A DNA stretch of 64,000 bases from Ianthella basta (taxonomy: Eukaryota > Porifera > Demospongiae > Verongiida > Ianthellidae), in assembly GCA_964019415.1 (NCBI GenBank), contig OZ025888.1:4717036-4781035 (forward strand). The letters are read 5' to 3'. The position numbers and the translations under genes were made by a program. This document shows, one piece after another, positions 9,746 through 45,105 of this stretch (its first letter is position 1; every line of letters begins with the position of its first letter). A model generated the notes under the pieces. That model was not told the DNA's origin, did no database searches, and saw only the letters and a program-made list of their open reading frames with translations.

Positions 9746-12476
9746 ATGCTGCTGCCGCTCCAGAAACTGATCGGCCTAACGGCTGTCCTGATCGTCTTCT
9801 CCTTTGTAACAGTTCAATCTCAAAGTATGGGTGATAGTGATTCTGCTTCCGACTTTCAGGACACGCCCGTCTTCAACGCCTGCATCCCTGTCGTGAACGG
9901 CTCAGCGAACCCTTCAGGTGTCCCCCTTCCGTCTTTCCCGCAGCAGTTCAGCGTGCAGGTGGAAGCATCCCTCACGAACAGAAACAGCACAGCTAGATTT
10001 GTCGAGTATTACGACGGTGTGGGACAACGTGGAAGGATCGAAGGCTACTTCAGCGCAGCATATCAGTTCGGCCCTCCTACTCGATTTACCTATGTCGCTG
10101 ATTTCAAGACTGACCAGGGTTTCCGCATTGAGTTTCCTGACAGCTCTGCCGTCAACTGTGAAGTGGTGAGGTTGGAGAACGACAGATTCACCCAGTTTAC
10201 CTTTCACACACTTCCAGGCCCCAACGGTACAATCCAGATCGGTTCTGCCAACGACTTGTTCCAGTTTGCCGGTCAACTGAAGGATCAAGAGGTGTATATG
10301 GGGCAAGAGTATGCGAGGGGAGTCCTCACTGACCACTGGCAGTATTGCTATCGGACGATGAACGTGTCCTATGTGATTGACTATTACTTTGCAGTGGAGG
10401 GTTGGGGACTGCCACAGAACGCCAGTCGTACCCCCATCCTTGCCACAGTGTTTGGGATAAATCAAGATGAGGATTTTGGTATACGTGTCATCAACCACAC
10501 GTACACCTTCACTGCCTTTGACCCTTCTCCTCTTGGTGATGACGTGTTTGCTGTCCCCGAGGGTGTAGTCTGCAAGAACAGGAAGAACTTGAAGCCTCTT
10601 CCTCCTCTTGACGGTATCAAATTCTTCAGTAGCATTTTCGAATCAACCAACACAGCAAAAGGACAGTCCTTTTATTCACCATTCTTCTACGACCGTCAAG
10701 CTAATCTTGTTCGCTATGACTTCACCTATCGAAACAGATCTGACCCTAAGAGTGTGCCAGGTCCGAGAAGTGCAATTCATGATTTCACACAGGGTGTCCA
10801 GTACTTGATTAACAGAGATAATGGATTCTGCAATGTCACCAGTCTCAGCGCAACAGGCTCTATCACACCTGATGAAGTTGTAGATGACCAGGGGAACTAT
10901 GCTATTGCTTCACTTCTGCACCTTCTCTCCCCCATCAATGACAGTGCCTCTGCCTATGTGTATGAAGGAGCCTCCACTGTGAGAGAAATTCCTGCTGAAA
11001 CCTGGCTGGCATTCATTCCAGTGGCTGCTGCTATGAATTTCCCCAATGTGACACTGGAAAATGTCACTAGCCTTATTTATTTCTCAAGGGACAACTGGGT
11101 TGTGAATGGTAGAAATGCCACAATGCCGACAATTCTTCGTGTGCGTGTCCGTGGGACAGCTATACGGAATGGCACTACTATACAATTTGATTTTTCTACC
11201 AATGTCTTCAACGTGGAATTTGAGGAGCCTCCGTTTGAAGTGTTTGATGCCTTTGAATGCTTCCCGCCTGAGCAGACAAAAGAGGTGATGTTCACCCTGC
11301 CTGTCGCGCCAACACCAAACACTCTCTCTCTGCTCCGAAGCAACATAAGGATGTCCCTCTCCAGCTTTACCAAAGCACCTGGATCACAGTTTGGGAACAT
11401 TCAGGTTAGAAGGGAATTGACGCTCCACACGCATTAGGGTCTGTGCGCGCAGAGGCTTGGCAAGTTGCAGCATAGATGCTTGTATGGGGTTTGCTTGTGG
11501 CATAAACTATCCCGTTGTTCGTAGCAATGTTTATTGTGGTAAATGTGTATTAGTGAAGTGGTGCTTAAGGTTCGTAGACACCAGGCAAATGAGCAATTGG
11601 TCTCCAATGTATTCGGTAGCTTCCAGCTGCCTTCATCAGGGAATAATGACAAGTGGAGCATTGCTACCAAAGCAATGATCAAATGTCCATTTTGGCTAGT
11701 GTCTGTGAATCTTAAGCATGTCTGACCTACCTAGCCACTCAAGGCTTTCCAAGCTAGTAAATTATTGGTGTTTCACTCTATGCCTTCTGTTTCTGCTGTG
11801 ATACACTTTCCTGAAAGTGAGCCAAAGTAACCAAACCCACATGTTTCATTTTCTGTGTGAGAGGTACGTGTGCATGCATGTGGAAGAAGCTAGAATGAAG
11901 CAAGCTGTAAAAATGGATAATATTGTGTAGTAGAGGTGTGCCTTGTGTATATTTGTGGTCAACCTACATGACCAATGGGTGCAGTCCCATTTCAATCATA
12001 GTTCCACCTTCATTATGACCTCATAGACTTGTTGTCTGTGCCTTAGTGCCTAGCTGTCTGTTCTGAGCTGTGTGCCTTCACTGAGGCTCACTTTCTCCTC
12101 TCTCTTGTAGATCCAGACCTACTCTCCAGACAGCATTGTGGTCAACTTGCTCCTCCATGATCCACCCAGTGCTGGCTACATGAATGGTACACGAAAGAAT
12201 AGTCAGACCCTGCTCAATGACATCACTGCAGGCATCTCCAGTGGTTCTCTCAAGATTCGCCTCTCCGATGGTACCATGGTCACTCCCCACTCTCTGCAGC
12301 AGGTCTGTGCCCAGCAATCAGCCGGCACCACTGCAGGGATAGTGGTAGGATGTTTGGCAGGAGGCTGCATTATCGGTATTCTCTTGGTAGCTGCAATGGT
12401 GGGCATCTACAAGTGTATGAAACGCACCGGGAAGACAGCCAGCGTCTCTTACAATGTCCACAAGGATGAACAGTAA
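9746..12476 (+). CDS. Receptor-like glycoprotein A (two exons), LolA-like ectodomain family
   Basis: Exon 1 is 9746-11404 (553 codons) and exon 2 is 12111-12476, with a phase-0 GTTAGA/TAG intron, giving 674 residues. A signal peptide occupies about 1-26. The ectodomain is rich in N-glycosylation sites and contains FVEYYDGVGQRGR, GQEYARGVLTDHWQYC, YYFAVEGWG, DDVFAVPEGVVCKNRKN and GFCNVTSL. Exon 2 encodes a conserved 60-residue module (VVNLLLHDPPSAGYMNGTR...LKIRLSDGT), then one transmembrane helix at about 627-653 and a 20-residue basic tail. The blocks WQYC and VFAVPEGVVC remind me of the metazoan 'LolA-like domain' proteins; this is from memory and unverified. Unlike its paralogues it has no Ser/Thr/Pro stalk, and its tail differs. 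Function unknown; a cell-surface or secreted-ligand-binding role is inferred. Confidence 0.85.
11609..11650 (-). ncRNA. Degenerate hammerhead-like motif in intron of gene A
   Basis: On the minus strand, CTGATGA (11633-11639) is followed by one A, then stem GGCAGCT, loop GGA, AGCTACC, then GAATAC in place of GAAAC. It shares the extra A with the copy at 5504 and probably derives from a Penelope-type repeat. The GAAA box is broken. Confidence 0.35.
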
Positions 12477-14779
12477 TGGTGCAATGCATTCTTTACTACC
12501 TTCTGGAACTAACTATAGACATAGAGTAATGCTGACTGTAGTTTGTCGCTGTATTCAACTACCTCCTCCTTGCATATCTTTATGCGCAGGTTTTGTAATT
12601 ACTTGCCTCCTTTTTGGGGCTCTGTATTAAGTTTCATTGCTGCAATTGTATTCTTTGAATGTGTGAGCATATCGAGATAGATTTTAAGCTATGTGAAGCA
12701 TATGCAGATGTGGCTCATTAACATAATGCATTGCATATAGCATAGCTCGCACTTGGTACATACGTATACATTTTGGTAAATGTACGCATCCATCTTGCAA
12801 TTGCTCTCTTATACTAGGCATACGCTAAGCGCATAAGAATTCCCTCGCAGCATGAGTAGTACGTGGCCAGTAGACAAGTGTAATGTGATGTTACAGACTG
12901 GAGCTGTCTTAGTAGCCAAGCGCCTTGTTTGTTATTGTCAAAGCTCCTCAAGCCTGGACTGCCGCTGCTCGTCCGTCGCCGACGCCAGTAGCCTTGCGCC
13001 ATCTGGTCGCATGCGCTTCTAGTCTGGCCTATCCTTGCCCCGCTGTCTCCGTATCAAGTCGCGCGCACCGTCTTGCAGCGTGGCCCCCTCGGCGTGCTGG
13101 ACGCAGCCGCGTCATTGCCATTTCCTTCTGTGCCCCTCTTCCGCGGGAGCATGCCGGCAAAGATGAGCGGCCGAACAGTAGCAGAAGCACCCCTTGAACA
13201 GCCGAGCCGTCACGTGACAGAGGCACATGCGCAGTCACGTGTCGTGCGATATCGCCGAGGCTCGAATAGACAGCGATCAATGGCCTCGCTTCGCTCGCTC
13301 GGCAATAAGCACATGCATGCATGCAATATGCATACGTATATAGTGCAGACAATGCAATGCATATAAAGTATGTAATTATAGTTACATTGCTATTGTACAT
13401 ACAGTTTACTGGATAGGCTATATAGCCTTTGATCCATTCCCTCCCTATATACCGAAGTGGGCGGGCTCTATCTAGATCCACCTTTGAAACTCCCACACTG
13501 GGCACTGACTAATCAGTGACACCATCAGAAGTGGTAATTAAGATGGTCTATGTACCATGGTCAATGTATCAGTTTCCCTTTCCCCCTCTTTCTTTACCAT
13601 ATGTAATTCCGAACGTTGTCTTTCATTTGTGTCACCATGGTACATAGACCATCTTAATCAGCACTTCCGATAGTGTCACTGATTAGTCAGTGCCCGGTGT
13701 GGGAGTTTCAAAGGAGGCTCTGGATAGAGCCCGCCTATTTCGGCATATAGAGAGGGAATGGATCAGTGGCTGTTGGCGGTGACCAGTGACCCAGCTGCTA
13801 GAGGGTCGGCTAAAGATCTGGAGGTTGCTGGTGCTGGTCTGGTTCACTGCCATTTTTTCCCTTCCCCCCTCTTTCTTTACCATGCATATGTAGTTCTGAA
13901 TGTTGTCTTTCAATGATCATACTGTACATAACAGAGGTTTGATTGTACTGGCATGTGACAAGTGCAAAGAACGCCAAAGATCCACCTACTCAGTGCCACT
14001 ACAAACTACAGGAACTGAAGCTGCAGGATTGCATGAAGCTTCTGGCAAGATGAGTTGGCTCACTTGCTGAACGTAGGCCATAATTCTCAAAAATTGCTCA
14101 ATGCTTGGAGATACCTATATGCTCAAAACATATGCCAGCATTATTTATCTGGGCCTTGCCTGTATACTGGCCATATGTACATTTTGGACCATAGCTCGAG
14201 CTCAATCATAGCACAATCATGCAATTAATGCTGCACCCTATATTACAGCATCAAAGAACTAGAATTTGAACTATACAAAATGTGTAAGGTAAAGTTAGTG
14301 CTGCGCATAATGCATGGACTTCATATGCTGTACAGTAGAACGTGTACAGTGTATAAGGCAGCCACCTGTCTAAAACAGCAAGCCTCTCTGATGTCACTCC
14401 AAATAGCATGCACTAAATATAGCACTGCAGGCTATAGCTATCTCTGTAATGCAGCCATGCACCATTCATGCAAAAACAGCCAGCCTCTCACTCAGACTCC
14501 AAATGCAAATAGCACTAAACATAGCACTAAAACATTACAGCTTACTTCTGTAATTCAGACACCTCTCTATAAAGGCCAACTGTTACTGGGTAACATACAC
14601 AGGTGGCTGTCTTAGACAGGTTCCAATGTGGAGCTCACTCAGGCTCGCCCCAATTAACTGGACTAGTTTGTTGAAACATTCAAACTAAAGTATAAAAGCA
14701 CTACACTATTAACTCCGATGAATAGTTTGACATGAAAGCATGCATGAATCTAAATTTAATGATTCCTTCTAAGGATGCT
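12477..14779. other. Convergent intergenic region between receptors A and B
   Basis: No gene supported. About 12960-13270 is markedly GC- and CpG-rich, with two CACGTG boxes near 13209 and 13236 and an ACATGCGCAG (NRF1-like) site between them. It could be an orphan promoter island. 13430-13765 is a fold-back element. 14340-14600 holds the dispersed CAGCC-rich repeat. Confidence 0.5.
13430..13765. mobile_element. Fold-back element with about 135-bp arms
   Basis: The left arm (13430-13562) and right arm (13635-13765) are inverted copies sharing GGCGGGCTCTAT, CTGACTAATCAGTGACAC and AAGATGGTCTATGTACCATGG. The 70-bp spacer holds a CCCCTCTTTCTTTACCAT block repeated again at 13864. Confidence 0.8.
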
Positions 14780-17623
14780 TCACATGTCGTCCAGTTGTTG
14801 GGCATAGTTCATCTTGGACAAATGCATCTTTCGACATGCTCTGATGGCCAGTACTGTCCCAGCCACTATCAGTCCCAGGAGGAGGCAGGCAATGAAACCA
14901 CCAATGAAGCATCCTACAGCCATTCCTCCAATGTTAGGTAAGCCTTCAAGCTTGACTGGATTGGAAGGACACAGGGTTGGGGTCGGGTCCAGTGTGGTGC
15001 TTGGGAACTGACTTGGAGTTGGACTGAGAGCTTGCGTTGATGATGGTGTTGGGCTAGGTGATGGACAGGGTTGCTGCGAGTGAGGAGAGACCATGGTGCC
15101 GTCAGAGAGACGAATCTTGAGAGAGCCGCTGGAGATGCCTGCAGTGATCTCATTGAGCAGGGTCTGACTATTCTTTCGTGTACCGTTCATGTAGCCAGCA
15201 TTGGGAGGATCGTGGAGGAGCAAGTTGACCACAATGCTGTCCGGAGAGTAGGTCTGGATCTATAAGAGAGAGGAGGAAGTGAACAGTTACAGACCTTTTG
15301 AATCGCTTGTCCACACTGCGTACCAGTATCCGGTAAGCACTTGCACAATATTATATGGATTCATACACATACTTACAGTATAATTGCAAGATCTAGTGTT
15401 GACATAGATTGCAAGCTAGAGATTTTATACAGCAATACTGCTCATGTTAATGTATAATACCACGATTTCGACTCCAGTACCCAGTGCCCAGTGTGGATAA
15501 CCAATACGAAATAGGAATGTATAAGGGTCAAGGCACAGACACCAAGTCTATGAGGTTTTAATGAAGGTCAAACTATGGTTAAACCAATATTTCTCTTTAG
15601 TGATTATTGAATAAAAGGGACTGCACCATCTGGTCTTGTGGAGTCTGCATGGACTGACCTCAATTAGCCACAAGGGACATACAAGTGCAGTGTTATCCCT
15701 TACTTAGCTTCTTCGGCTATAAGGCTTCTTTCTAATGCATCCTGGCTTCTTCCATGCCTCCCAAACTGATGCAGAGTGAATAAAACTTTACTCGACTAAG
15801 TGCACATTTACTACGACTGACACTGCTAGTGTACAACAGACAATTACAGCTTACCTCCACAACAGGTAAACCCCATTACCAGCATGCACGCATTACAACT
15901 CGCTGAGCCCATTTTGGTTCACCCTAATGTAGCTTATGTCATTTTCCATCCAATCTTACTGATCCCTTCTAACCTGAATGTTCCCAAACTGTGATCCAGG
16001 TGACCCTGTAAAGTTGGAGAGGGATGTCCTTACATTGCTGCGGAGCAGAGAGAGAGTGTTTGGCGTTGGCGCGACAGGCAGGATGAACATCACCTCTTTT
16101 GTCTGATCAGGCGGGAAGCATGCAAAGGCATCAAACACTTCAAACGGAGGCTCCTCAAATTCCATGTTGAAGACATTGGTAGAATAATCAAATTGTATAG
16201 TAGTGCCATCCCGTATAGCTGTCCCACGGACACGCACACGAAGAACTGTTGGCATTGTGGCATTTCTACCATTCACAACCCAATTGTCCCTTGAGAAATA
16301 AATAAGGCTAGTGACCTTTTCCAGTGTCACATTGAAATTCATAGAAGCAGTTACTGGAATGAATGCTAGCCAAGCTTCAGCAGGAATTCCTCTCACAGTG
16401 GATGCTCCTTCATACACATAGGCGGAGGCGCTGTCATTGAAGGGGGAGAGAAGGTGCAGAAGTGAAGCAATGACATAGTTCCCCTGGTCATCTACAACTT
16501 CATCAGGTGTGATAGAGCCTGTAGTGTTGAGACTGGTGACATTGCAGAATCCATTCTCTCTGTTAATCAAGTACTGAACACCCTGTGTGAAATCGTGAAT
16601 TGCACTTCTCGGACCTGGCACACTCTTAGGGTCAGATCTGTTTCGATAGGTGAAGTCATAGCGAACAAGATTAGCTTGACGGTCGTAGAAGAATGGTGAG
16701 TAAAAGGACTGTCCATTTGCTATGTTGATTGATTCGAAAATGGTACTGAAGTATTTGATACCATCCAGAGGAGGAAGAGGCTTCAAGTTCTTCCTGTTCT
16801 TGCAGACTACACCCTCGGGGACAGCAAACACGTCATCACCAAGAGGAGAAGGGTCAAAGGCAGTGAAGGTGTACGTGTGGTTGATGACACGTATACCAAA
16901 ATCCTCATCTTGATTTATCCCAAACACTGTGGCAAGGATGGGGGTACGACTGGCGTTCTGTGGCAGTCCCCAACCCTCCACTGCAAAGTAATAGTCAATC
17001 ACATAGGACACGTTCATCGTCCGATAGCAATACTGCCAGTGGTCAGTGAGGACTCCCCTCGCATACTCTTGCCCCATATACACCTCTTGATCCTTCAGTT
17101 GACCGGCAAACTGGAACAAGTCGTTGGCAGAACCGATCTGGATTGTACCGTTGGGGCCTGGAAGTGTGTGAAAGGTAAACTGGGTGAATCTGTCGTTCTC
17201 CAACCTCACCACTTCACAGTTGACGGCAGAGCTGTCAGGAAACTCAATGCGGAAACCCTGGTCAGTCTTGAAATCAGCGACATAGGTGAATCGAGTAGGA
17301 GGGCCGAACTGCTGTGCTGCGCTGAAGTAGCCTTCGATCCTACCACGTTGTCCCACACCGTCGTAATACTCGACAAATCTAGCTGTGCTGTTTCTGTTCG
17401 TGAGGGATGCTTCCACCTGCACGCTGAACTGCTGCGGGAAAGACGGAAGGGGGACACCTGAAGTGTTCGCTGAGCCATTCACGACAGGGATGCAGGCGTT
17501 GAAGACGGGCGTGTCCTGAAAGTCGGAAGCAGAATCACTATCACCCATACTTTGAGATTGAACTGTTGCAAAGGAGAAGACGATCAGGACAGCCGTTAGG
17601 CCGATCAGTTTCTGAAGCAGCAT
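14780..17623 (-). CDS. Receptor-like glycoprotein B (two exons), short stalk
   Basis: Exon 1 is 17623-15974 (550 codons) and exon 2 is 15259-14780, joined in phase 0, giving 709 residues. Exon 1 is close to gene A throughout, with the same signal peptide core LIGLTAVLIVFSF. The frame is open 16 codons further upstream, but the chosen ATG matches A and follows the shared GACAAG leader. Exon 2 begins IQTYSPDSIVVNLLLHD as in A. It then continues into a stalk of about 45 Ser/Thr/Pro-rich residues, a transmembrane helix at about 660-689 and a tail ending KMNYAQQLDDM. Stalk and tail resemble C and D, not A, so B is a mosaic: A-like ectodomain with a C/D-like C terminus. The intron is 714 bp. Confidence 0.85.
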
Positions 17624-19262: not shown

Positions 19263-19269
19263 ACAAGTA

Positions 19270-21306: not shown

Positions 21307-23943
21307 TTACATTTCGTCCAGCTGTTGGGAATAGTTAACCTTGTACGATTTCATCCTTCGGAGTCCTCTGATACCTAGAACAATTCCAGCTACTATCAGT
21401 CCCAGGAGGAGGCAGGCAAAGAAGCCACCAAAGAAGCATCCTGCAGCTATTCCTGCAATGTTGGGTGCACCTTCAGTCTTGACTGGATCAGAAGAGGGAC
21501 ACAGGTTTGGGGTCGAGTCTAGTATCGAACTTGCAGACTGACTGGGAGTGGAATTTGGGATCTGACTGGGAGTGGAACTTGGGTTTGGACTAGGACTCAA
21601 AGATGGACTTGAACTTGCAGTTGGAGTTGAGGTAGGGTTCAACGTTGGGACTGAGGTTGGGGTCAAATCTGGAGCAGAAACAGGACAAGAGCAAAGAGTT
21701 GGAGTTGAAGTTGGATTTGAAGTTGAAGTGGAGGTGGGACCCGTTGAGTTGGAGGTTGGATTTGAAGCTGCAGTCGACCTAGGACTAGATGTTGGGCTCG
21801 GTGTGGTGCTGGAAATAGAGCCTGTCGTTGGCTTGGGAGTGGATTGCGAGGTTGGACTGAGAGCCTGCGTTGACGGTGTTGGGCTAGGTGATGGGCAGGG
21901 TTGCTGCAGCGAGTGAGGAGAGACCATGGTGCCGTCAGAAAGACGAATCTTGAGAGAACCACTGGAGATGCCTGCAGTGATGTCATCGAGCAGGGTCTGA
22001 CTATTCTTTGGTGTACCAATCATGTAGCCAGCATTGGGAGGATCGTGGAGGAGCAAGTTGACCACAATGCTGTCCGGAGCAAAGGTCTGGATCTATAATA
22101 GTAGAAATGAAACAGAAAGGGTTGGCGCTGCTACTACAATGCACGGCACCAATAAAGAGCATGCAGGCACAAACAGTCATAGCAATCACTGTCACTATGC
22201 ACGATAAGGTATTGTGACAATTCAAGGATGAATAGAGTCTGGTTCAGTTTCCAAAGGTGAGCTGAGCATACAATGATGTTAGAGGTAGCTCTACTACAGT
22301 AAACATGTACCCAACAAACATGAGCAAGGCATAGCCAGTACAGTGTGTACCTGAATGTTCCCAAACTGTGATCCAGGTGACCCAGTAAAGTTGGAGAGGG
22401 ACGTCCTAATGTTGCTTCGGAGCAGAGAGAGAGTGTTCGGTGTTGGTGCGACAGACAGGGTGAACATTGCCTCTCGCGTCTGTTCTGGCGGGAAGCACAC
22501 AAAAGCATCAAACACTTCAAACGGAGGCTCCTCCAGGTCATAACTGAAGATATCACTAATGTAATCAAACTGGTTAGCAACAGTACCATTCCAAATGGAC
22601 GTCCCATGGACACGCACACGTAGCACTTGTTTTGAGGAATTTCTACCATTCACAACCCAGTCATCCCTTGAGAAATACACCAGATATGTAACATTTCCCA
22701 GTGTCACATTGGGATAGGTAGGATCAGCCATTGGAATGAATGCTAGCCAAGCTTCAGCATCAATTCCTCTTACAGTGGAGGTTCCTTCATACACATAGGC
22801 AGAGGCACTGTCATTGTAGGGGGAGAGAAGGTGCAGAAGTGAAGCAATAACATAGTTCCCCTGGTCATCCACAACTTCATCAGGTGTGATAGAGCCTGTA
22901 GCGTTGAGACTGGTCACATTGCAGAATCCATTATCTCGGTTAATCAAGTACTGAACACCCTGTGTGAAATCATGGATTACGCTTATTCGGCTTGGTGCAC
23001 TTCCAGCAGATTTGTTTTGATATATGACATCATAGCGGACAAGATTAGCTTGCCGGTCATAGTAAAACGGATAAGTAGTTGTCTGCTTAGTTGTTATAAC
23101 GGTTGTCTGAGAAATGCTACTGAAGAATTTGATACCATCCAGAGGAGGAAGAGGCTTCAAGTTCTTCCTGTTCTTGCAGACTACACCCTCGGGGACAGCA
23201 AACACATCATCACCAAGAGGAGAAGGGTCAAAGGCAGTGAAGGTGTACGTGGTCTCCGTAATTACAAACTCTCCAGAAGGTGCACGAAAGTTAATTAAGA
23301 TAGTTGCCGAAATGGGTACACGGCTAGCATTCAAGGGAAAGCTCCACCCCTCTACAGCAAAGTAATAATCAACCAAGTAGGAGCCATTCTCGGAAGCAAA
23401 ACAGTATTGCCAGTTATCAGTCAGGACACCTCTCACGAACTCTTGGCCAATGTACATCACTTGGTCCTTTAGCATACCAGGAATAATAAAGTCGTTAGCA
23501 GAGCCAATCTGCAGTGTGCCGTTCGGTCCAGGGATTTCGTGAAAGGTGAAGTTGGTATCCCTGTCTTCTTCCAGCGGCACAGCGGTGCAGTCCGTGATTC
23601 GGCCTCCGGCATACCTTATGTGGAAAGCCTGGTCCGCATTGAAGTCGGATATCAAGGTGAATTGATCGACATAGTCCACCCGACCGCGCTGGCCTACGCC
23701 GTCATAGTATTCCACCGCTCGATACGTGGCGTTCTGTTGCCCATTGGCAGCTTCGATTTGCACGCTAAACTGTGACGGAAAGGAGGGGAACGGAACTGCA
23801 AGATCATCAAGCGAGCCGTTCAGCGGCTCGCACATCGTGAAGTTGCCGTCTACCTGAGCATTGGTATAAACGCACAGCAACGCAGTCAGAAGAAATGTAA
23901 ATGAGACTTCTTTTCCAAGCTGCATCTTCTCCAGGCCACCCAT
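21307..23943 (-). CDS. Receptor-like glycoprotein C (two exons), long mucin-like stalk
   Basis: Exon 1 is 23943-22351 (531 codons) and exon 2 is 22092-21307, phase 0, with a 258-bp intron, giving 792 residues. The start MGGLEKMQLGKEVSFTF is chosen because it is shared with D, although the frame is open to 23967. The signal peptide ends near VYTNAQ. The N-terminal 250 residues are only about half identical to A/B. Later blocks (FTAFDPSPLGDDVFAVPEG, DEVVDDQGNY) are almost identical. Exon 2 carries the 60-residue VNLLLHD module, then about 150 residues of Ser/Thr/Pro-rich low-complexity sequence with NPTS/TPTS-type repeats. A transmembrane helix follows at about 743-771, then a tail ending KVNYSQQLDEM. 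The stalk predicts dense O-glycosylation and an extended stem. Confidence 0.85.
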
Positions 23944-24044
23944 CGTAGATACTCCGGCAATCAACACGTCGACCTCTTATGACCATGAATCTATTTTAAA
24001 CACCTCAGTCAATGAATAATGTTGTTACTGGCTCACCTGAGCGG

Positions 24045-30000: not shown

Positions 30001-30105
30001 AACCAACTTTCCCCCAGGACAGCTCTAGACCGAATCCCGATTCCCAATCTGCGGCCATTTACCGGTAAGTAGCCTCGTACCTAGTACAGAATAGTCTCAG
30101 GGCAA

Positions 30106-31616
30106 GGGGGGTCGGTCAAGGTCACGTGTGTCCGCAAAATGGCTGACGCGGCTGCTCTTTACTGTGTATTTTACCTATGCTAGCTAAGAGCAGACATATT
30201 TCGAGAAACACGTCGCATCGCTTGTTCCTTTGCTTCTGAGCACACAGTTGGACAAGGGCTATCAGAAAATGGACCCTTCCCCGCCCTTCCCCAGCATCTA
30301 GGTAGGTTTTGCGAGCATTTTCCAACACCGGTGTACGAGTATTCGCTGTTGCTGGCTACGAGGCAGATGGAGCCTAATCTGGAGTACTGAGCAAGTGCTC
30401 CTGTGGAAGTGACTCCTTAGAAGCTGGTAGCGAGTCCTCATTGATCACTTCAGGACTGCAAGACTGATAGGTTGACTGCTTCTGCAATGGGAGTGCAATC
30501 GGCAGCCACGTCCTTGCAATCGTCTTAGTTCTGTACACGATTTGTCACATTTGATAGCAGGGATGCTAGAAATGGCTTGAGCGTGCTGGCAATCCTCAAG
30601 AAACGCTGCGATAACTTGCAAAACTAAATCGTGAAAGCGGTCAGACAATTAAGCCCAATCCACCGTATGGCTCCTTGGCTACGTACGTACCGGTCATACC
30701 AGGGGCGCGAATGCAGTACAAGGCCCTGCCATGGCTCAGGGTATGCACATTCGGCCTTGGAGCACAGTCAGCTAACATATGGAGACGCGATTAGAATGTC
30801 AGGAATGCAATTATTGAGGTGCTGGTATTGCGCAATCCCAGGACCTTGTCCGACCCCCCTGGTCTCAGGGGGGGTCGGTCAAGGTCACGTGTGTCCGCAA
30901 AATGGCCGACGCGGCTGCTCTTTACTGTGCATTTTACCTATACTAGCTAAGAGCAGACATATTTCGAGAAACACGTTGCATCGCTTGTTTCTTTGCTTTT
31001 GAGCACACAGTTGGACAAGGGCTATTAGAAAATGGACCCTTCCCCGCCCTTCCCCAGCATCTAGGTAGGTTTTGCGAGCATTTTCCAACACCGGTATACG
31101 AGTGTTCGCTGATGCTGGCTACGAGGCAGATGGAGCCTAATCTGGAGTACTGAGCAAGGGCTCCTGTGGAAGTGACTCCTTAGAAGCTGGTAGCGAGTCC
31201 TCATTGATCACTTCAGGACTGCAAGACTGATAGGTTGACTGCTTCTGCAATGGAAGTGCAATCGGCAGCCACGTCCTTTCAATCGTCTTGGTTCTGTACA
31301 CGATTTGTCACATTCGATAGCAGGGATGCTAGAAATGGCTTAAGTGTGCTGGCAATCCTCAAGAAACGCTGCGATAACTTGCAAAACTAAATCGTGAAAG
31401 CGGTCAGACAATTAAGCCCAACCCACCGTATGGCTCCTTGGCTACGTACGTACGGGTCATACCAGGGGCGCGAATGCAGTACAAGGCCCTGCCATGGCTC
31501 AGGGTATGCACATTCGGCCTTGGTCAGCTAACATATGGAGACGCGATTGGAATGTCAGGAATGCAATTATTGAGGTGCTGGTATTGCGCAATCTCAGGAC
31601 CTTGTCCGACCCCCCC
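30106..31616. repeat. Two tandem 750-bp units with GGGGGGTCGG inverted ends
   Basis: Unit 1 (30106-30859) and unit 2 (30868-31616) are about 95% identical. Each starts GGGGGGTCGGTCAAGGTC and ends GGACCTTGTCCGACCCCCC, so each looks like a terminal-inverted-repeat element. They are separated by only 8 bp (TGGTCTCA). Short frames inside (e.g. 30328-30122 and 31091-30885 on the minus strand) are near-identical between units but show no known domain. Confidence 0.8.
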
Positions 31617-31891
31617 TGGAATAGTCTCGTCCCAGCCCCACTTCCGCAAAAATGGCTGCCGCCCGCGGAAGTGTGGCTGTGGACGAGACTACCTCGTACC
31701 CAGTCCCTATTTCCATTCCGACTTCCGCTCGGGAGGGATATTTCCCTCCCGAGCGGAAGTCGAAATGGAAATAGGGAAATAGGGAAATAATGGAAATAGG
31801 GAAATAGGGAAACATTCCGCCTTCCGCTCGGGAGGGATATTTCCCTCCCGAGCGGAAGTCGGAATGGAAATAGGAACTGGGTACGAGGCTA
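31617..31891. mobile_element. Two adjacent fold-back structures with GCTCGGGAGGG hairpins
   Basis: 31617-31692 pairs TAGTCTCGTCC with GGACGAGACTA around a CACTTCCG...ATGGCTGCCG core. 31694-31891 pairs TACCTCGTACCCAGT with ACTGGGTACGAGGCTA. It contains two internal hairpins (about 31720-31760 and 31827-31866), each pairing CTTCCGCTCGGGAGGG with its complement, separated by ATGGAAATAGGGAAATAGGG repeats. Confidence 0.75.
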
Positions 31892-32484: not shown

Positions 32485-33535
32485 TTATATTCATAATAAC
32501 AATATTGATATTCATGGTGCCACATACAAACTGTACAAATGTACTGTAGGTTTCAGGCTAGGAACATAATGTTTTGGAAATCACTTCAGCCTGGAGCAAG
32601 ATTAAGGACTGCTCATTGCTCCTATCTTGGCTTGCATGCTGCAAGATAAATAAACAATTTGCTTTGCACATATACTCCCAGGCATCAATCAAACAGTAGA
32701 CATTCAGCTGCCTATATGCATCCTGTGCATGCATGCATGTAGACTTCAGGAAGGTGTACATGTGTGCTTCTGTGTGTGCATGCACACACAAATCATGTAC
32801 ATTGCTGACTTCTGCGTGCTACAAAATGTGTAGAAGAACTAGTACTAGAATGCAAAACTAGAATGCAGCAGTCAGTACACACATGCAAGCTCATGAATTA
32901 AGCTACTATACTGCTGTATGTACATACATTTGTGTGCATATAGTTGAATGAGAATATACTGTGAGGTATATGCACAATTGTATGTTGTTAGTACTGTTCT
33001 AGCTATGGTGTACGTGAGGCATGCAAGCCATGCATTTACAGGCACGAGAAAGGAATGGAGGGCATTTTGTGTACGGTAAGCTGATAGTAAAGAGGCCTTA
33101 CAGCAGATGGCTAGCATTTCTAAAGTATGTCTTAAAGTATACATAGTACATGGCATGAGGAGGCAGGCATGAGAACAGAATGAAGGGCATTCTGTGTAAA
33201 GCAAACTGATGGTGAAGAGGCATGCCACGTACAGCAGTTACAGCCCACTTAGTTTGGACAGGTGGAAGGTAACTATTGCTATACTCAGGGGTTATTTCAA
33301 GCACAATGCATGAATAAGGGCAGCAAAGAACATTTGAAACCCATAGATAGTCTTCTCTAAACATACTGACCTGCATGCAGGGACCTGCACATGAAGTACA
33401 ACTATATGGCTGCATACATACCTGAGAAGCAATATAGCTACCATACAACCATTACAAAGTAATTGGACTCCATCTGCTGTCATGCCTCTGCACTATCAGT
33501 TTACTATATACAAAATTCCCTCCATTCTGTAACCA
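32485..33535. repeat. Segmental duplication, copy with the empty site
   Basis: This 1.05-kb stretch recurs in direct orientation at 34360-35357 plus 35858-35910 at well over 95% identity. It contains no convincing gene. Long shadow frames occur in both copies because the sequence is duplicated. At 33480-33505 it keeps the uninterrupted site CATGCCTCTGCACTATCAG. Confidence 0.85.
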
Positions 33536-34359: not shown

Positions 34360-35910
34360 GCATTCATAATATCAATATTGATATTCATGGTGCCATATAC
34401 AAACTGTACAAATGTACTGTAGGTTTCAGGCTAGGAACATAATGTTTTGGAAATCACTTCAGCCTGGAGCAAGATGAAGGACTGCCCATTACTCCTATCT
34501 TGGCTTGCATGCTGCAAGATAAATAAACAATTTGCTTTGCACATACTCCCAGGCATTAATCAAACAGTAGACATTCAGCTGCCTATATGCATCCCATGCG
34601 TGCATGCATGTATAGACTTAAGGAAAGTGTACATGTGTGCTTCTGTGTGTGCATGCACACACAAATCATGTACATTGCTGACTTTTGCGTGCTACAAAAT
34701 GTGTAGAAGAACTAGTACTAGAATGCAAAACTAGAATGCAGCAGTCAGTACACACATGCATGCAAGCTCATGAATTAAGCTACTATACTGCTGTATGTAC
34801 ATACATTTGTGTGCATATAGTTGAATGAGAATATACTGTGAGGTATATGCACAATTGTATGTTGTTAGTACTGTTCTAGCTATGGTGTACGTGAGGCATG
34901 CAAGCCATGCATTTACAGGCACGAGAAAGGAATGGAGGGCATTTTGTGTACGGTAAGCTGATAGTAAAGAGGCCTTACAGCAGATGGCTAGCATTTCTAA
35001 AGTATGTCTTAAAGTATACATAGTACATGGCATGAGGAGGCAGGCATGAGAACAGAATGAAGGGCATTCTGTGTAAAGTAAACTGATGGTGAAGAGGCAT
35101 GCCACGTACAGCAGTTACAGCCCACTTAGTTTGGACAGGTGGAAGGTAACTATTGCTATACTCAGGGGTTATTTCAAGCACAATGAATAAGGGCAGCAAA
35201 GAACATTTGAAACCCATAGATAGTCTTCTCTAAACATACTGACCTGCATGCAGGGACCTGCACATGAAGTACAACTATGGCTGCATACATACCTGAGAAG
35301 CAATATAGCTACCATACAACCATTACAAAGTAATTGGACTCTATCTGCTGTCATGCATGCCTCTGCTAGTCTCGTACCCAGACCACTTCCGGCCGCCATT
35401 TTGAAATGGGCCGAAAGATGGTCTGGTAGTAGCTTCGTCCCCCCAGGCCCTTCGCGTTAATTATCGCGGACGGCCTGGGGACGAGGCTAGTCTGGTAGCT
35501 ATGTGCAGATTCCTTGGCATTGATTGCGTAACCGTTAGCCTTGCAATTGCGTAGCTAACAGCCGTAGTTTGCATTAACAGCGCTAGCAGTCGTTCACACT
35601 ATGGAAGAGGAACGCTGTGCCTTGGCAACATCCCCAAGCACTCTTCGATAGCGCAGGGGCTCCACTAAGATTCCAAGTAAAGGAACATTCATCGCTGCAC
35701 AATTAGCTATAATGTACTTGCGCACGTGACCACGTATCTGCAATCTGATTGGTGTCCGCGGATCCGTGGATTCCGCCAAGGAATCTGCACATAGCTCCCA
35801 GACCATCTTTCGGCCTATTTCAAAATGGCGGGCGGAAGTGGTCTGGGTACGAGACTATGCCTCTGCACTATCAGTTTACTGTACACAAAATTCCCTCCAT
35901 TCTGTTCTCA
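34360..35910. repeat. Segmental duplication, copy with an insertion
   Basis: This is the second copy of the 32485-33535 block, split by the fold-back element at 35367-35857. Flanking bases TGCCTCTGC occur on both sides, once in the sister. Confidence 0.85.
35367..35857. mobile_element. 491-bp fold-back element, TAGTCTCGTACCC ends, 9-bp duplication
   Basis: It starts TAGTCTCGTACCCAGACCAC and ends with the reverse complement. TGCCTCTGC flanks it at 35358-35366 and 35858-35866. The sister copy at 33485 is an empty site, which proves insertion and its limits. The arms carry ACTTCCGGCCGCCATTTT, adjacent ETS-like and YY1-like motifs. A smaller nested fold-back (TCGTCCCCCCAGGCC paired with GGCCTGGGGACGA, about 35435-35488) interrupts the left arm. 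Confidence 0.9.
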
Positions 35911-36843: not shown

Positions 36844-37997
36844 GTCACACAGTCTCTCCTCCTAAGCGGTGCATGCATTTTGATAAAACAGTCCTTTCAC
36901 CAGTTTACAAGTACGTTCAGGGACTAGTGCGGCACCTGGACGCTGGTACCTCAACCCATACACAGCTGCTTTCGTTTAAAGACCCCGCGTTGTGTAGGTG
37001 AGTGTATGGCTGCACGCGCTTTGGGTGGTTGTACGAGGCCGGGGACAACACCCACATTTCCAAAGACGGCATGTATGTTTGTTGGAATTTTAAAGGAACC
37101 GTTTAAAGCGTTCTAAACTCCATATGCATGAAACAGAGGGTGATTCTGGTACCTGCGAACGTCACTGCATGCATAATGGCACTGATGAGGTGACCTCATA
37201 TCAGTTGTTCTCTCCCACTCCTCCCCGCCCCACAGTGCACCCACCATGAGCTTCGACTTCTCCCGGGTCAGCAGCGTCTCCCAAGGACACACACCCATGC
37301 ATTACCCTCACCTCGCTAGCCCACTCAATAGCCCAAACCCAGCAGCAGTGGCCATCCCACTGCAGAGCCCAAACATGCTGCTGAGCCCTACAAACCAGGC
37401 AATCAGCCCTCGAGGGATCCCTGTGTCACAGATCCCCCCATACATGCACCCACAGCGGACAGGGATGCCTCAGTTTGTCCCCCAGCCTCCACAGTATCAT
37501 TCGCAACAGTTCTCCCCCAAGGCGATCCCAAACTCCCCAACCTCTCCCAAGCATGGGCAGAATGCTGTGTTTCATACCATCCCCAACAACAATATTGCCT
37601 CCCTGCCCCAGGGGTTCATGCCTGCGCAAATGACCACTGAGCCTGGTCCAGGAAATAGCTACCTTATACCATCCTATTCAGGTGATCCCTCAGCCGCAGT
37701 GCAACTTGCAGCCTACGCAATTGGTTGACCCAGAATCACCATAGGTGAAGGAGCTGGAAGATTTTGCCATCTCCTTCAAGCAGAAATGCTTGAAGCTTGG
37801 CTACACTCAGACACAAGTGGGACAAGCCTTTGCAGAAATCAACGAGACCGACTTTAGCCAGACCACCATCTGCAGGTTTGAGAATCTGCAACTCAGCTTC
37901 AAATATGCACAGAAACTGAATTCTGGAAAAGTGGCTTGAGCAGGCAGAGAAGGTGGGCAGAGTTCCAGAGCAGAAGGAAGCCTCCCCAGAGCAACGA
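36844..37997 (+). pseudogene. Truncated, frameshifted duplicate of the POU-I gene
   Basis: It matches 45330-46503, including the upstream non-coding exon, the intron and the start ATG at 37246. The Pro/Gln-rich N terminus and most of the POU-specific domain are present, but the homeodomain is absent. Lesions relative to the intact gene are a 24-bp in-frame loss near 37468, small insertions near 37650-37665 that shift frame, a nonsense TAG at 37742-37744, and a 5-bp deletion near 37920. It ends abruptly in reverse-oriented receptor sequence at about 37998. It is not expected to make a DNA-binding protein. Confidence 0.9.
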
Positions 37998-38340
37998 CAT
38001 AGGTGAATCGAGTAGGAGGGCTGAACTGATATGCTGCGCTGAAGTAGCCTTCAATCCTTCCACGTTATCCCACACCGTCGTAATACTCGACAAATCTAGC
38101 TGTGCTGTTTCTGTTTGTGAGTGATGCTTCCACCTGCATGCTGAACTGTTGCAGGAAAGATGGAAGGGGGACACCTGAAGTGTTCGCTGAGCCATTCACG
38201 ACAGGGATGCAGGCATTGAAGACGGGCGTGTCCTGAAAGTCGAAAGCAGTATCACTATCACCCATACTTTGAGATTGAACTGTTACAAAGGAGAAGACAA
38301 TCAGGACGGCCATTAGGCCGATCATTTTCTGGAGCGGCAT
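37998..38340 (-). pseudogene. Truncated receptor copy E (5' end only)
   Basis: From the ATG at 38340 the frame follows receptor B through signal peptide and about 90 codons, to GVG. A C-to-T change then makes TAA where A and B have CAA (about 38068). Homology continues past the stop to about 38003 and then switches to POU sequence. Everything encoding the rest of the ectodomain, stalk and membrane anchor is missing. Its promoter phrase (TATAGCGTGGGCGCTT) is intact, so transcription is possible. Confidence 0.9.
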
Positions 38341-40275
38341 CTTGTCAAGCTCCCAACTTCCGAGACTTGCATAGTCGGAAACATGCAATCCGAGAAGCGC
38401 CCACGCTATAATACATAAGTGAATGTTGTAATTGCTCCTTTAGCTATATGGATTTGGGACAGCCCCAAGTATCCTTATTAGAGAGGTGTCCTTATTCAGA
38501 GGTGGGTTTGTGCACATCTCTATGAAGTAACTGGGTCAATAGACACTGCCCTCACTAGACAGGTCTGGCTTGGTAGACGTGCCAATAAGCGCCTATAGCT
38601 CTTTCCATGCCAATAGGCGATTATTGGCGTCTGGCCAACTGTTATAGTTGGGACTACACAAGGTATACTGGACCACAGTGCTTGCTATTATAAGTGAAGA
38701 TTAGCTAGAGCATTAGTCTACCACCTGGTGGGCGTGCAAGACATAAGCAGAAAACTGAACTTATTGGACATGCATGCACGTGCATGCATACGGTAGCTAG
38801 CTAAATGCATTGATTTCTCGTTCATTAGACTGTTACTGTAGCACAGCATATATTGAGTAGCAATTTATGGTTTAATGTAGCTAACCAGTACAGATTTAAT
38901 AAAGATCATTAATTTTTGGAAAATAGCACAATCAGCAGTCACTAGTATTACTGCATACGTAGTTGGGTGTGATGTGGCTAAAAATGATTATCGTGTAAAA
39001 ATACCTTGTGAAGTGCAAGCCTGCAGCTGTGGCTGCATGAAAGCACACTGAGACCTAGCTACATACATATCCTTTAAAACAAGATCAAAGGCACCTATGT
39101 AGAGGTACCTATATACAGATAGCTACTTTGCACAGGTCAAACAATAGAATGCTCGAGCATGAGAGTATAGCTATGGCATGATGTAAGACCAGATGAAGGC
39201 CATGCAAGTAAGTGATCAATGCTGACCTGGTCCATGTATTATGAATATTTCAATGAAATGCACTACTATTCTACAACAATAAAGTACACCATACATACAT
39301 GTGCAGCCATTCACACTGATCATCTGAGAGGCTTGTTCGAGCAAATCAAGCAACAGAAGAGCATGTGGTTAGTTATCTATTTCAGGATCTTTTGATATTT
39401 GACCTCGAGGGTCAGGTGAACGATGTACGAGACAGTCACAATCAGTTATTCAGCTGACAAAGATGCTTAAGGCTAAATGTCCTAAACTTGTACCTTTCTG
39501 TTGCAAGATTTACTCAAAGAAATCTTCTCTGTTCATTGTCCACAGTGAGCCTCTACAAGTGTGCACATTGTCCTATACATAGTATAATTGTAAACAGTAC
39601 ACACAGCTGTTGTTGCATAATAGCTATATAGGGTGACGGTTAGCTGGTGAAAATGTATTCAAATTAATTTGAAAATGTACTTGAAAACACATAACAGTTA
39701 CTGCAAGAAGAAGAATGTTGACCTCCACAGAGTGCTGAACAAGGAATAGTATTGGATTGGATTGGATTGGAAATCTTATTTAAACTGAGAAGACCTTTAG
39801 CCTAAAGGCTACTTCTCAAGGCACCCAGACACAAAGAGAAAGAAAACAAGGACAAGGACAAGACAATAAACAAGGAATAAGGGAGGTGACAAGCATAGCT
39901 GTTCAGGTAATAGATAATCAATAAATTAATTGTTAATGAAGATGAATGACAAATATGATCAATTGGGAATTGCATGCAGGAGCTCAAAAGGTGTAAGATA
40001 ATAAATAAATGTTCCTAGCTGCAGTTGCAAATGTATCTAGGTTCTTGATGTCTCTCAATCTTAGTGGCAGAGCATTCCAGCTCCTTGACCCACGAAAGGC
40101 AAAAGATTTCTTTCCGTGGTTCGTGCAACTGTAAGGGATAAGAAGTCCTTTGCTTCTGGAAGACCTGGTCTCGTGCTGGTGAACCTGGGATGATGGCTAG
40201 AAAAGGGCATGCAGAGAGGTACGGGGAGCTATGCCCTGAAAAGCAGTGAAAAACCTCAGTAACTTCACTGAGTTT

Positions 40276-40590: not shown

Positions 40591-40605
40591 ACCTGGGAAC
40601 TTGTA

Positions 40606-41332: not shown

Positions 41333-41880
41333 TTACTTGCATTTAAGAGTCACGTTAGTATAGATAGCAACACCTCCACCGTGGCAATGACGATATTTCC
41401 TATGAATATTGAATCCAGGAATTTCAAGCAATAAATCTTCAACACTGGAATCCAGCCAGGTTTCAGACATGGCTAGGATGTCAGGAGAGTGGGTACTGAC
41501 AAATTCAGTCACTTGTTCAAGGTGCCCCATGAAACTATGGACATTAAGATTAGTAATGTTGAACGATGAGTGTGAAAATACCAGTGAGGTTGGTGATGCA
41601 ACTGCAGAGGTTGGTTGTATGCTCTCTATAAACAGACTGTCAAACTTGGGTAGGGCACAGTTGGCACAAGACCACAAGTTGCTGCTCTTAGACAGCCGAC
41701 TGTATAGTGGATCGTTTATACCCTCACATTTGGTGTGGTACCAACGGTCACAGGTATCACACAGAAATCGCTTCTGATTTACGTTCACTGGTTTGTACAC
41801 ACCTTCCACATGGAAACCTGACAGGTTCAGGATTTGGCTCAACGTCTCCAGCAAGCAGCAGTAACCAGTAGTGAGTTGGC
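41333..41880 (-). pseudogene. LINE ORF 5' part: 2A-like peptide, PHD finger, start of endonuclease
   Basis: Around 41875-41830 the minus strand encodes LLLLAGDVEPNPEP. The 2A consensus ends NPGP, so the glycine codon has mutated to glutamate. A frameshift follows, then CDTCDRWYHTKCEGIND and WSCANC form a PHD zinc finger. ITNLNVHSFMGHL and AMSETWLD begin an exonuclease-endonuclease-phosphatase domain. It continues in other frames through 40890-41330 (VCGDLNVNLLDAGHS, DIGISDHCAV), with at least one stop. Confidence 0.85.
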
Positions 41881-42414
41881 ATCAGCGGTGTCTGGCCGCA
41901 GCAACTACGACTTCGCGAACTGAGATAGAGAATAGTCATCAGAGAATAGTAGTTAGTTACTTGAATCTTCTTCCTTTTCCTGAAGCCACCATGACAATTT
42001 TCAATATGGTGTGCACACATGCATGCACATGTCAACACACATGAAGCACACAGCATAATAATATGGCTAGCTACACTGTGCATGCATGACATCAGGAAAT
42101 TGCTAGAATGTTACATGCATGGTTAGGGCTTTTGCCTGTTGGACCATAGCCGACAGCACATGCACATTCCAGTGTCAATGAACTAAACAAAGCACAATAG
42201 ACAATGCTATAGTGATGGGCTCCACGAACCAGCAGACCAATATGTGTTATGTAAACTACAAGCTTAATTGCCAAGCAATTTTATCATAAAGATTACAATC
42301 AAAAAGCAGCCAACTATAAAAACTATACTAACTTGTTGAAGCATTGAAACTAAAGAAAAGTTAACCATACAACATGAATCATGAATCAATCCAAATGACT
42401 CCTACAAGGACACT

Positions 42415-45105
42415 TTACATGTTGTCCAGCTGGTGGGAATAGTTAACCTTGTATGAATTCATCTTTCGGAATCCTCTGATACCTAGAACAATTCCAGCCA
42501 CTATCAGTCCCAGGAGGAGGCAGGCAAAAAAGCCACCAAAGAAGCATCCTGCAGCTATTCCTGCAATGTTGGGTGCACTTTCAGTCTTGACTGGATCAGA
42601 AGAGGGACACAGGTTTGGGGTCGAGTCCGGTATCGAACTTGCAGACTGACTGGGAGTGGAATTTGGGATCTGACTGGGAGTGGAACTTGGGATCTGACTG
42701 GGAGTGGAACTTGGGTTTGGACTAGGACTCAAAGATGGACTTGAACTTGAAGTTGAAGCTGGATTTGAAGTTGGAGTTGAGGTAGGGTTCAACGTCGGGA
42801 CTGAGGTTGGAGTCGAATCTGGAGTAGAAACAGGACAAGAGCAAAGAGTTGGAGTTGAAGTTGGATTTGAAGTTGAAGTGGAGGCGGGACCCGTTGAGTT
42901 GGAGGTTGGATTCAAAGCTGTAGTTGACCTAGGACTAGATGTTGGGCTCGGTGTGGTGCTGGATATAGAGCCTGCCGTTGTCTTGGGAGTGGATTGTGAG
43001 GTTGGACTGAGAGCCTGCGTTGACGGTGTTGGGCTAGGTGATGGGCAGGGTTGCTGCAACGAGTGAGGAGAGACCACGGTGCCGTCAGAGAGACGAATCT
43101 TGAGAGTACCATTGGAGATGCCTGCAGTGATGTCATCGAGCAGGGTCTGACTATTCTTTCGTGTACCATTCATGTAGCCAACATTGGAAGGATCGTGGAG
43201 GAGCAAGTTGACCACAATGCTGTCCGGAGAGTAGGTCTGGATCTATAATAGTATAAATGAAACAGAAAGGGTTGGCACAGCTACTACAATGCACGGCACC
43301 AATAAAGAGCATGCAGGCACAAACAGTCATAGCAATCACTGTCAATATGCACGATAAGGTATTGTGACAATTCAAGGATGAATAGAGCCCGGTTCAGTTT
43401 CCAAAGGTGAGCTGAGCATACAATGATGTTAAAGGTAGCTCTACTACAGTAAACATGTACCCAACAAACATGAGCAAGGCATAGCCAGTACAGTGTGTAC
43501 CTGAATGTTCCCAAACTGTGATCCAGGTGACCCAGTAAAGTTGGAGAGGGACGTCCTAATGTTGCTTCGGAGCAGAGAGAGAGTGTTTGGTGTTGGTGCA
43601 ACAGGCAGGGTGAACATCACCTCTTTTGTCTGTTCAGGCGGGAAGCACACGAAAGCATCAAACACTTCAAACGGAGGCTCCTCCGGGTCATTACTGAAGA
43701 TGTCACTAATGTAATCGAACTGGTTAGCAACAGTACCATTCCAAATGGACGTCCCATGGACATGCACACGTAGCACTTGTTTTGAGGAATTTCTACCATT
43801 CACAACCCAGCCATCCCTTGAGAAGTACACCAGATATGTAACATTTTCCAGTGTCACATTGGGATAGGTAGGATCAGCCATTGGAATGAATGCTAGCCAA
43901 GCTTCGGCATCAATTCCTCTTACAGTGGAGGTTCCTTCATACACATAGGCGGAGGCACTGTCATTGTAGGGGGAGAGAAGGTGCAGAAGTGAAGCAATAA
44001 CATAGTTCCCCTGGTCATCTACAACTTCATCAGGTGTGACAAAGCCTGTAGCATTGAGACTGGTGACATTGCAGAATCCATTATCTCGGTTAATCAAGTA
44101 CTGAACACCCTGTGTGAAATCGTGGATTACGCTTATTCGGCTTGGTGCACTTCCGGGCTCAGATTTGTTTTGATATATGACATCATAGCGGACAAGATTA
44201 GCTTGCCGGTCATAGTAAAACGGATAAGTAGTTGTCTGCTTAGTTGTTATAACAGTTGTCTGAGAAATGCTACTGAAGAATTTGATACCGTCAAGAGGAG
44301 GAAGAGGCTTCAAGTTCTTCCTGTTCTTGCAGACTACACCCTCAGGGACAGCAAACACGTCATCGCCAAGAGGAGAAGGGTCAAAGGCAGTGAAGGTGTA
44401 CGTTTTCTCCATAATTACAAACTCTCCAGAAGGTGCACGGATGTAACCTAAGACAGTTGCCGAAATGGGTACGCGGCTAGCATTCAAGGGGAAGCCCCAC
44501 CCCTCTACAGCAAAGTAATAATCAATTAAGTAGGAGCCATTCTCGTAGGCAAAACAGTATTGCCAGTTATCAGTCAGGACACCTCTCACGAACTCTTGGC
44601 CAATGTACATCACTTGGTCCTTCTGCATACCAGGAAAAAACAAGTCGTTAGCAGAGCCAATCTGCAGTGTGCCGTTCGGTCCAGGGATTTCGTGAAAGGT
44701 GAGGTTGGTAGCCCTGTCTTCTTCCAGCGGCACAGCGGTGCAGTCCGTGATTCGGCCTCCAGCATACCTTATGTGGAATGCCTGGTCCGTGTTGAAATCG
44801 GATATCAAGGTGAATTGACGATCGACATTCCAGTAGTCCAACCGACCACGCTGGCGCACGCCGTCATAATATTCCATCACTCGATACGTGGCGTTCAGTT
44901 GCCCATCGGCTGCTTCGATTTGCACGCTAAACTGTGACGGTAAGGAGGGGAACGGAACTGCAAGATCATCAAGCGAGCCGTTCAGCGGCTCGCACATCGT
45001 GAAGTTGCCGTCTACCTGAGCATTGGTATAAACGCACAGCAACGCAGTCAGAAGAAATGTAAATGAGACTTCTTTTCCAAGCTGCATCTTCTCCAGGCCA
45101 CCCAT
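42415..45105 (-). CDS. Receptor-like glycoprotein D (two exons), longest stalk
   Basis: Exon 1 is 45105-43501 (535 codons) and exon 2 is 43242-42415, phase 0, 258-bp intron, giving 810 residues. The start matches C at MGGLEKMQLGKE; an open frame extends 26 codons upstream but is not conserved in C. D is the sister of C and is close to it along its whole length. Exon 2 has the VNLLLHD module, about 165 residues of Ser/Thr/Pro-rich stalk, a transmembrane helix at about 761-789 and tail KVNYSHQLDNM. Compared with C, D has extra copies of two stalk units (SNPASTSS and SSTPSQIP types). No disabling change is visible. Confidence 0.87.

What the first reader, a model, noticed from the sequence alone, without database searches (positions are those of the whole stretch)
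9746..45105. Clustered receptor-like family with a stalk that varies from 0 to about 165 residues
Four intact genes (A, B, C, D) share a signal peptide, a large N-glycosylated ectodomain, an invariant phase-0 intron, a 60-residue membrane-proximal module, one transmembrane helix and a short tail. Seen directly: stalk lengths of none, about 45, about 150 and about 165 residues, with tandem units gained between sister copies C and D. Inference: a surface system in which reach and glycosylation vary while the head is conserved, as in some recognition or adhesion receptors. The ectodomain resembles LolA-like metazoan proteins only from memory.
Basis: partly seen in the sequence, partly recalled or inferred. 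Interest (0 to 1): 0.75.

Follow-up and report, generated by a model that had tools for sequence, protein, structure and literature searches.

The report
Tandem LolA-fold surface receptor cluster
A small cluster of animal cell-surface proteins seems to carry two copies of a fat-binding fold as its head; the copies have exchanged head sequence while their stalks, membrane anchors and tails stay different, so one shared binding head may be presented at different heights and to different cell interiors.

Summary
Four intact genes (A-D) each encode a signal-like leader, a large ectodomain with many N-glycosylation sequons, a phase-0 intron, a membrane-proximal module, a stalk of 10, 47, 148 or 162 residues, a transmembrane helix and a short tail. 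A 5' fragment (E), fused to a truncated POU copy, was missed. In the genome (209 Mb, 96 contigs) the head matches these five places only (lower bound).

New: the ectodomain is two homologous halves with EPDR1-like D-x6-R...C...W...F...C positions. A half-2 model of low confidence (pLDDT 48) has EPDR1, sponge EPD-BCP1 and LolA as its ten best Foldseek matches. The recalled LolA likeness is thus supported, but Pfam Ependymin is not reached (at most 15.2 of 32.3 bits).

The head is partly homogenised: A and B share 224 of 225 residues in half 1, while introns and 3' ends are mostly unalignable. Most likely these are membrane-anchored hydrophobic-ligand receptors or carriers with a shared head and diverging stalk and tail, resembling paired receptors. 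Ligand, signalling and stalk polymorphism are untested.

The parts
9746..12476 (+). Gene A: exon 1 9746-11404, phase-0 intron 706 bp, exon 2 12111-12476; 674 aa; practically no stalk (10 residues)
9920..10594 (+). Gene A, half 1: first LolA/EPDR-type domain (residues 59-283)
   Evidence: homologous to half 2: shuffle tests, alignment A4; motif YDx6R
10598..11269 (+). Gene A, half 2: second LolA/EPDR-type domain (residues 285-508)
   Evidence: fold search of the D counterpart; motif
11270..12308 (+). Gene A, membrane-proximal SEA-like segment (residues 509-619), split by the intron 11405-12110
   Evidence: SEA likeness is inference from the strand/helix order read by eye; no Pfam or PDB sequence match
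12339..12401 (+). Gene A, most hydrophobic 21 residues of the transmembrane helix (630-650)
14780..17623 (-). Gene B: exon 1 17623-15974, phase-0 intron 714 bp, exon 2 15259-14780; 709 aa
14927..15067 (-). Gene B, Ser/Thr/Pro-rich stalk, 47 residues (57 % S+T+P)
21307..23943 (-). Gene C: exon 1 23943-22351, phase-0 intron 258 bp, exon 2 22092-21307; 792 aa
21454..21897 (-). Gene C, stalk, 148 residues (68 % S+T+P), with 1.9 copies of a 24-bp unit at 21538-21583
42415..45105 (-). Gene D: exon 1 45105-43501, phase-0 intron 258 bp, exon 2 43242-42415; 810 aa
42562..43047 (-). Gene D, stalk, 162 residues (70 % S+T+P), with 2.9 copies of the 24-bp unit at 42646-42715
43636..44304 (-). Gene D, half 2: the domain whose structure was predicted and searched
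44308..44958 (-). Gene D, half 1: first LolA/EPDR-type domain
37992..38564 (-). Fragment E: 5' part of a B-like exon 1 with leader and proximal upstream DNA; upstream likeness to B continues in pieces to 39751; truncated
36844..37998 (+). Truncated second copy of the POU gene's 5' part, fused to fragment E
10091..10558 (+). Gene A residues 116-271: longest stretch in which A and B are identical at every polymorphic site (175 sites in a row)
   Evidence: no run as long in 2000 shuffles

Best explanation
A one-locus family of type I membrane glycoproteins. Shown or well supported: gene structures, a pair of homologous ectodomain halves, likeness of half 2 (and by homology half 1) to the LolA/ependymin-related fold, a stalk that differs in length between copies, one transmembrane helix, a short tail, and head sequence that has moved between copies while intron, stalk, transmembrane segment and tail diverged. 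Inferred: each half is a beta-clam whose groove, or the interface between the two clams, binds a hydrophobic ligand (lipid, or a carotenoid as in the sponge protein EPD-BCP1); the mucin-like stalk sets how far the head stands from the membrane; sequence exchange keeps ligand specificity common to the copies, so that copies with the same head but different reach and tail give different outcomes, as in paired receptors. The tail is too short to be an enzyme; any signal would go through its tyrosine eight residues from the end or through a partner.
Confidence: 0.45

Rival explanations
1. Membrane-tethered carriers or scavengers: the heads only hold or hand over lipids or carotenoids at the cell surface; the stalk is a passive spacer that drifts in length by slippage, and nothing is signalled.
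For: EPDR1 binds membranes with negatively charged lipids and is proposed as a lysosomal activator or lipid transporter (PMC6363788, abstract); EPD-BCP1 of a sponge carries carotenoids (PMC10470211, start of the abstract in a listing, and passages). Tails are 20-24 residues in A, B and C. The C/D difference in the stalk includes a gained tandem unit.
Against: Does not by itself explain why such carriers have four different stalk lengths or why A keeps a very different anchor and tail.
Confidence: 0.3
2. Polymorphic self/non-self or pathogen recognition receptors whose stalk and head vary between individuals.
For: Clustered copies, exchange between copies, an incomplete copy and tandem-unit change; that such features are usual in recognition loci is recalled.
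Against: dN/dS is below 1 in the six whole-length pairs and in the four pairs of each head half: A/B half 1 has 2 silent and 2 replacement changes in 225 codons, the opposite of diversification between those copies. Only one haplotype is on hand.
Confidence: 0.12
3. Neutral concerted evolution of an ordinary, constrained membrane protein family: exchange by proximity and inverted arrangement, stalk length without function.
For: The like parts of A and B form an inverted pair 4.5 kb apart, a geometry that favours exchange (inference); exchange patches do not follow domain borders exactly.
Against: The A/B likeness stops at the intron and at the stalk, leaving the anchor and tail old and different; one pair cannot show selection for that.
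Confidence: 0.13

Closest known systems
Ependymin-related proteins (EPDR1/MERP; sponge EPD-BCP1), LolA/LolB/VioE fold superfamily
   Same: Predicted beta-rich fold with these as leading matches, the D-x6-R motif, positions of the conserved Cys pair and Trp matched by eye, hydrophobic leader, tandem gene clusters
   Different: EPDRs have a median length of 213 aa (PMC6280359 Results part 1), and the vast majority in three clades consist of the fold alone, though an EPDR+cathepsin form exists and the tree of PMC6363788 used 229 domains from 196 proteins, so proteins with more than one domain are known (section 12). Here: two domains, a membrane-proximal module, stalk, transmembrane helix and tail. 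Pfam Ependymin cut-off not met. The genome's recognisable ependymins lie elsewhere, on C20.
Vertebrate paired receptors (e.g. CD300A/CD300C)
   Same: Like ectodomains preserved by gene conversion beside divergent signalling parts (PMC12447643 abstract)
   Different: Immunoglobulin superfamily with inhibitory and activating signalling; neither is seen here. A likeness of working only.
SEA-domain mucin-like membrane proteins
   Same: Membrane-proximal alpha/beta module (by eye) next to a Ser/Thr/Pro-rich stalk
   Different: No SEA profile match; here the module precedes the stalk, and the usual G-S cleavage site reads D-S (motif recalled).

Membership tests
Ependymin-related proteins (Pfam PF00811) | Score over the curated cut-off of the family profile | tested here: not met
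   Best 15.2 bits against 32.3 in C; D 14.3 and B 13.1 bits; none in A
Ependymin-related proteins (Pfam PF00811) | Three cysteines common to all EPDR profiles (PMC6280359) | tested here: inconclusive
   Equivalents of C113 and C210 of EPDR1 can be placed by eye in both halves (A: C138/C276, C362/C505); an N-terminal Cys can be placed before half 1 only (C46)
Ependymin-related proteins (Pfam PF00811) | Protein of about 213 residues, mostly the fold alone | tested here: not met
   Two halves, transmembrane helix, 674-810 aa
LolA/EPDR fold superfamily | Predicted or solved 11-strand beta-clam fold | tested here: inconclusive
LolA/EPDR fold superfamily | Conserved D70 and R77 (spacing 7) of EPDR1 | tested here: met
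   YDx6R in both halves of all four proteins; invariant in A4
LolA/EPDR fold superfamily | Binding of hydrophobic ligands | not testable with these tools
   Needs purified protein
SEA domain (PF01390) | Profile match | tested here: not met
   No SEA match up to E 10 (filters drop most above 0.1) in 8 exon pieces or in the spliced B protein and two spliced segments. One search found none in the genome, but nothing rang in the controls either, so that search says nothing
Paired immune receptors | Homogenised ectodomains with divergent anchors and tails | tested here: met
   A/B half 1 224 of 225 residues identical, transmembrane+tail 13 of 44
Paired immune receptors | Opposing signals through ITIM and ITAM or adaptors | not tested
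   Tails read by eye only; no usual motif seen

The most novel reading that the evidence does not exclude
An animal far from vertebrates (perhaps an early-branching one) has built a paired-receptor-like system on the LolA/EPDR lipid-binding fold: gene conversion keeps one tandem-clam ligand head common to several receptors while stalk length, membrane anchor and tail diversify, so that one hydrophobic cue is read at different distances and with different intracellular outcomes.
Probability: 0.2. Interest if true: 0.8.

Novelty: new variant of a known kind. Interest (0 to 1): 0.5.

Why it matters
EPDR/LolA-fold proteins are known mainly as soluble carriers of lipids or pigments. A membrane-anchored, two-domain version with a variable mucin-like stalk would be a receptor or tether use of that fold. 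The head-alike, tail-different pattern is the genetic signature of paired receptors, described for vertebrate immune receptors; finding it in another fold and a distant animal would let one ask whether it evolves wherever a common ligand needs several readouts. My nine paper searches listed no paper whose title or start of abstract describes such a protein; several lists were capped (10 of 292, 8 of 15 and 8 of 89 papers), and subscription papers are not held.

Tried and rejected
Pfam and NCBIfam scans of the exon pieces gave no accepted family. Low-scoring matches to collagenase G, interleukin-21 receptor, phage tail proteins, GrpE and glycosyl hydrolase 71 were set aside as sub-threshold and covering only part of a domain. 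A profile of all eight halves found nothing in PDB sequences at E up to 10. hhalign of half 1 against half 2 with four rows each gave probability 0.7 %, E 0.078: it did not support the repeat. Shuffle tests (number of 500 shuffles as good): local A1-A2 366, D1-D2 4, A1-D2 0, D1-A2 77; global 11, 1, 0, 8. AlphaFold2 on the whole of exon 1 failed (pLDDT 29). Scans for relatives in prokaryote genomes and viral contigs found none (70 and 126 stretches matched a pattern, none confirmed), as expected for an animal gene; no other animal genome is held. Weak matches of D exon 2 (72 rows at E up to 10, 140 of 172 candidates scored; 67 of the rows outside this locus): low-complexity stalk or transmembrane likeness. 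Of these 67 I looked at two (L036: a transmembrane exon beside what look by eye like CCP repeats; L037: another Ser/Thr/Pro run before a transmembrane stretch) and took them as unrelated; the other 65 were not examined. Four further stretches (L042-L045) were fetched and not analysed. A metazoan 'LolA-like domain' family that I recalled under a Pfam number is not in this library; a recalled link to trypanosome surface proteins gave two papers in the listing, not followed.

Gene conversion against partial duplication: for A/B the data show that exon 1 and the first part of exon 2 are much younger than intron and 3' end; whether by conversion or by unequal exchange is not decided. The run test shuffles sites and ignores selection and codon position. 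The runs of 16 sites shared by B with C and D at residues 620-626 reflect that A differs there and are no separate sign of exchange.
Full report
WHAT IS THERE. The window lies in an unnamed eukaryote genome of 209 Mb in 96 contigs, contig C21. Four genes are present: A (+, 9746-12476), B (-, 17623-14780), C (-, 23943-21307) and D (-, 45105-42415). Each has one phase-0 GT..AG intron at the same codon and an open frame of 674, 709, 792 and 810 residues. Introns are 706, 714, 258 and 258 bp. A six-frame search of the whole genome with exon 1 of A (E up to 0.001) or of D (E up to 10) found five places, all in this locus: the four genes and fragment E (5 of 5 candidates in each). Exon 2 of A found the four genes only (4 matches from 7 candidates). 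Counts are lower bounds by the tool's own note; highly diverged relatives could be missed.

ANATOMY. Leader with a hydrophobic core; a short N-terminal stretch; half 1 (A residues 59-283); half 2 (285-508); a membrane-proximal segment (509-619) that the intron splits; a stalk of 10, 47, 148 or 162 residues, 30, 57, 68 and 70 % Ser+Thr+Pro; a transmembrane helix; a tail of 20-24 residues in A, B and C. Sequons before the membrane: 14, 15, 18, 20. One search computed the transmembrane segment of A, B and C and then stopped with an error; that of D is placed by its likeness to C. All four tails hold a tyrosine eight residues from the end (sequences); its meaning is unknown.

THE REST OF THE ECTODOMAIN. 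Residues 509-619 read, by eye, as strand, helix, strand, strand, helix, strand, the order of a SEA-type domain (recalled), with the intron near the second strand. This is inference: no Pfam or PDB sequence match, and the SEA search of the genome was uninformative because nothing rang in the controls.

HOW THE COPIES EVOLVE. C and D are recent duplicates (overall dS 0.096; intron 97 % identical), with 3 kb of shared DNA (92.8 %). A and B are different: half 1 dS 0.014 (2 silent and 2 replacement changes), half 2 0.105, membrane-proximal segment 0.276, transmembrane+tail 1.73. Along the DNA, in bins of 100 columns, identity is 88-100 % in exon 1 from 9751 to 11350, 36-53 % inside the intron, 95 and 81 % at the start of exon 2, then 30-42 %. 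I read the low values as chance level, without a control; the introns do share one 55-bp piece at 87 % and a few shorter ones, so they are old relatives rather than unrelated. So the head of A and B is young and their 3' ends are old. Between the A/B and C/D types, half 1 has dS 2.0 (A-C) and 1.6 (B-D), but the bins at residues 270-300, 360-420 and 510-600 hold only 0-5 type-specific sites, against 15-45 in the other bins up to residue 510; beyond 600 A alone differs. The longest A-B run is 175 polymorphic sites (residues 116-271), not reached in 2000 shuffles; A-D has a run of 7 at residues 511-519, likewise not reached. B shares upstream DNA with fragment E far beyond where A stops matching, so A is the more likely recipient (inference). 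dN/dS is below 1 in the six whole-length pairs and in the four pairs of each head half.

FRAGMENT E. A B-like 5' piece (37992 onward, - strand; it covers residues 3-118 of the 553 of exon 1, with one TAA in the matched stretch) joins a truncated copy of the POU gene (36844-37998, 92.8 % identical to 45328-46507) with a few bases of overlap. No exon 2 of it was found. The intact POU gene lies beside D.

HOW IT PROBABLY WORKS. See the best explanation. Shown: anatomy, homology of the halves in most tests, exchange. Likely: LolA/EPDR fold. Inferred: hydrophobic ligand, stalk as spacer, shared ligand with different outcomes. In EPD-BCP1 the carotenoids sit at the dimer interface rather than in the groove (PMC10470211, passages seen), so the interface of two tandem clams is a candidate site too. 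The likeness to paired receptors rests on CD300A/CD300C, where gene conversion preserves the extracellular domain despite divergent signalling (PMC12447643, abstract).

MEMBERSHIP. Not filed as an ependymin-related protein: the profile cut-off and the usual size and form were tested and not met. Filed as a divergent, membrane-anchored two-domain relative of the LolA/EPDR-fold superfamily, with fold membership likely but marked inconclusive. Proteins with more than one EPDR domain are not new as such: PMC6363788 counts 229 domains in 196 proteins. McDougall et al. took several Amphimedon gene models to be incorrect on grounds that include several ependymin domains in one model, and rebuilt them where they could (PMC6280359 section 13); here both halves lie within one exon and cannot be a fusion of neighbouring models.

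VERDICT. The added points are the two-domain head, the head exchange with unalike 3' ends, and confinement to one locus as far as the search reaches. Interest 0.5.

Noticed in passing
54778-56967 and 57856-60045, +: Two tandem single-exon genes, 88.5 % alike, with B-box, filamin-type repeat and NHL repeats (TRIM-NHL-like; no Pfam RING hit at E up to 0.001).
   Followed up: partly
45676-46824, +: Open frame with POU domain and homeodomain, divergently arranged beside D; its 5' part is duplicated and truncated at 36844-37998.
   Followed up: partly
41336-41881, -: Piece with PHD finger and endonuclease/exonuclease domain, probably a LINE-type element remnant (the element type is my inference).
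   Followed up: no
12809-13000, +: Stretch downstream of A that belongs to a high-copy repeat: 38 other places at 94-97 % and one at 81 % identity, a lower bound (40 of 140 candidates scored).
   Followed up: no
30103-30862 / 30866-31619 and 32489-33485 / 34362-35356: Two further local duplications of 0.76 and 1.0 kb at 96-97 % identity: the region is rich in recent duplications.
   Followed up: no
L018-L024 (G000 contig C20, about 5.510-5.516 Mb): Cluster of recognisable ependymin genes or pieces of this genome (7 rows, 6 flagged over the cut-off alone or with neighbours; 4 of 7 have a stop in the matched frame, which may be intron read-through).
   Followed up: partly
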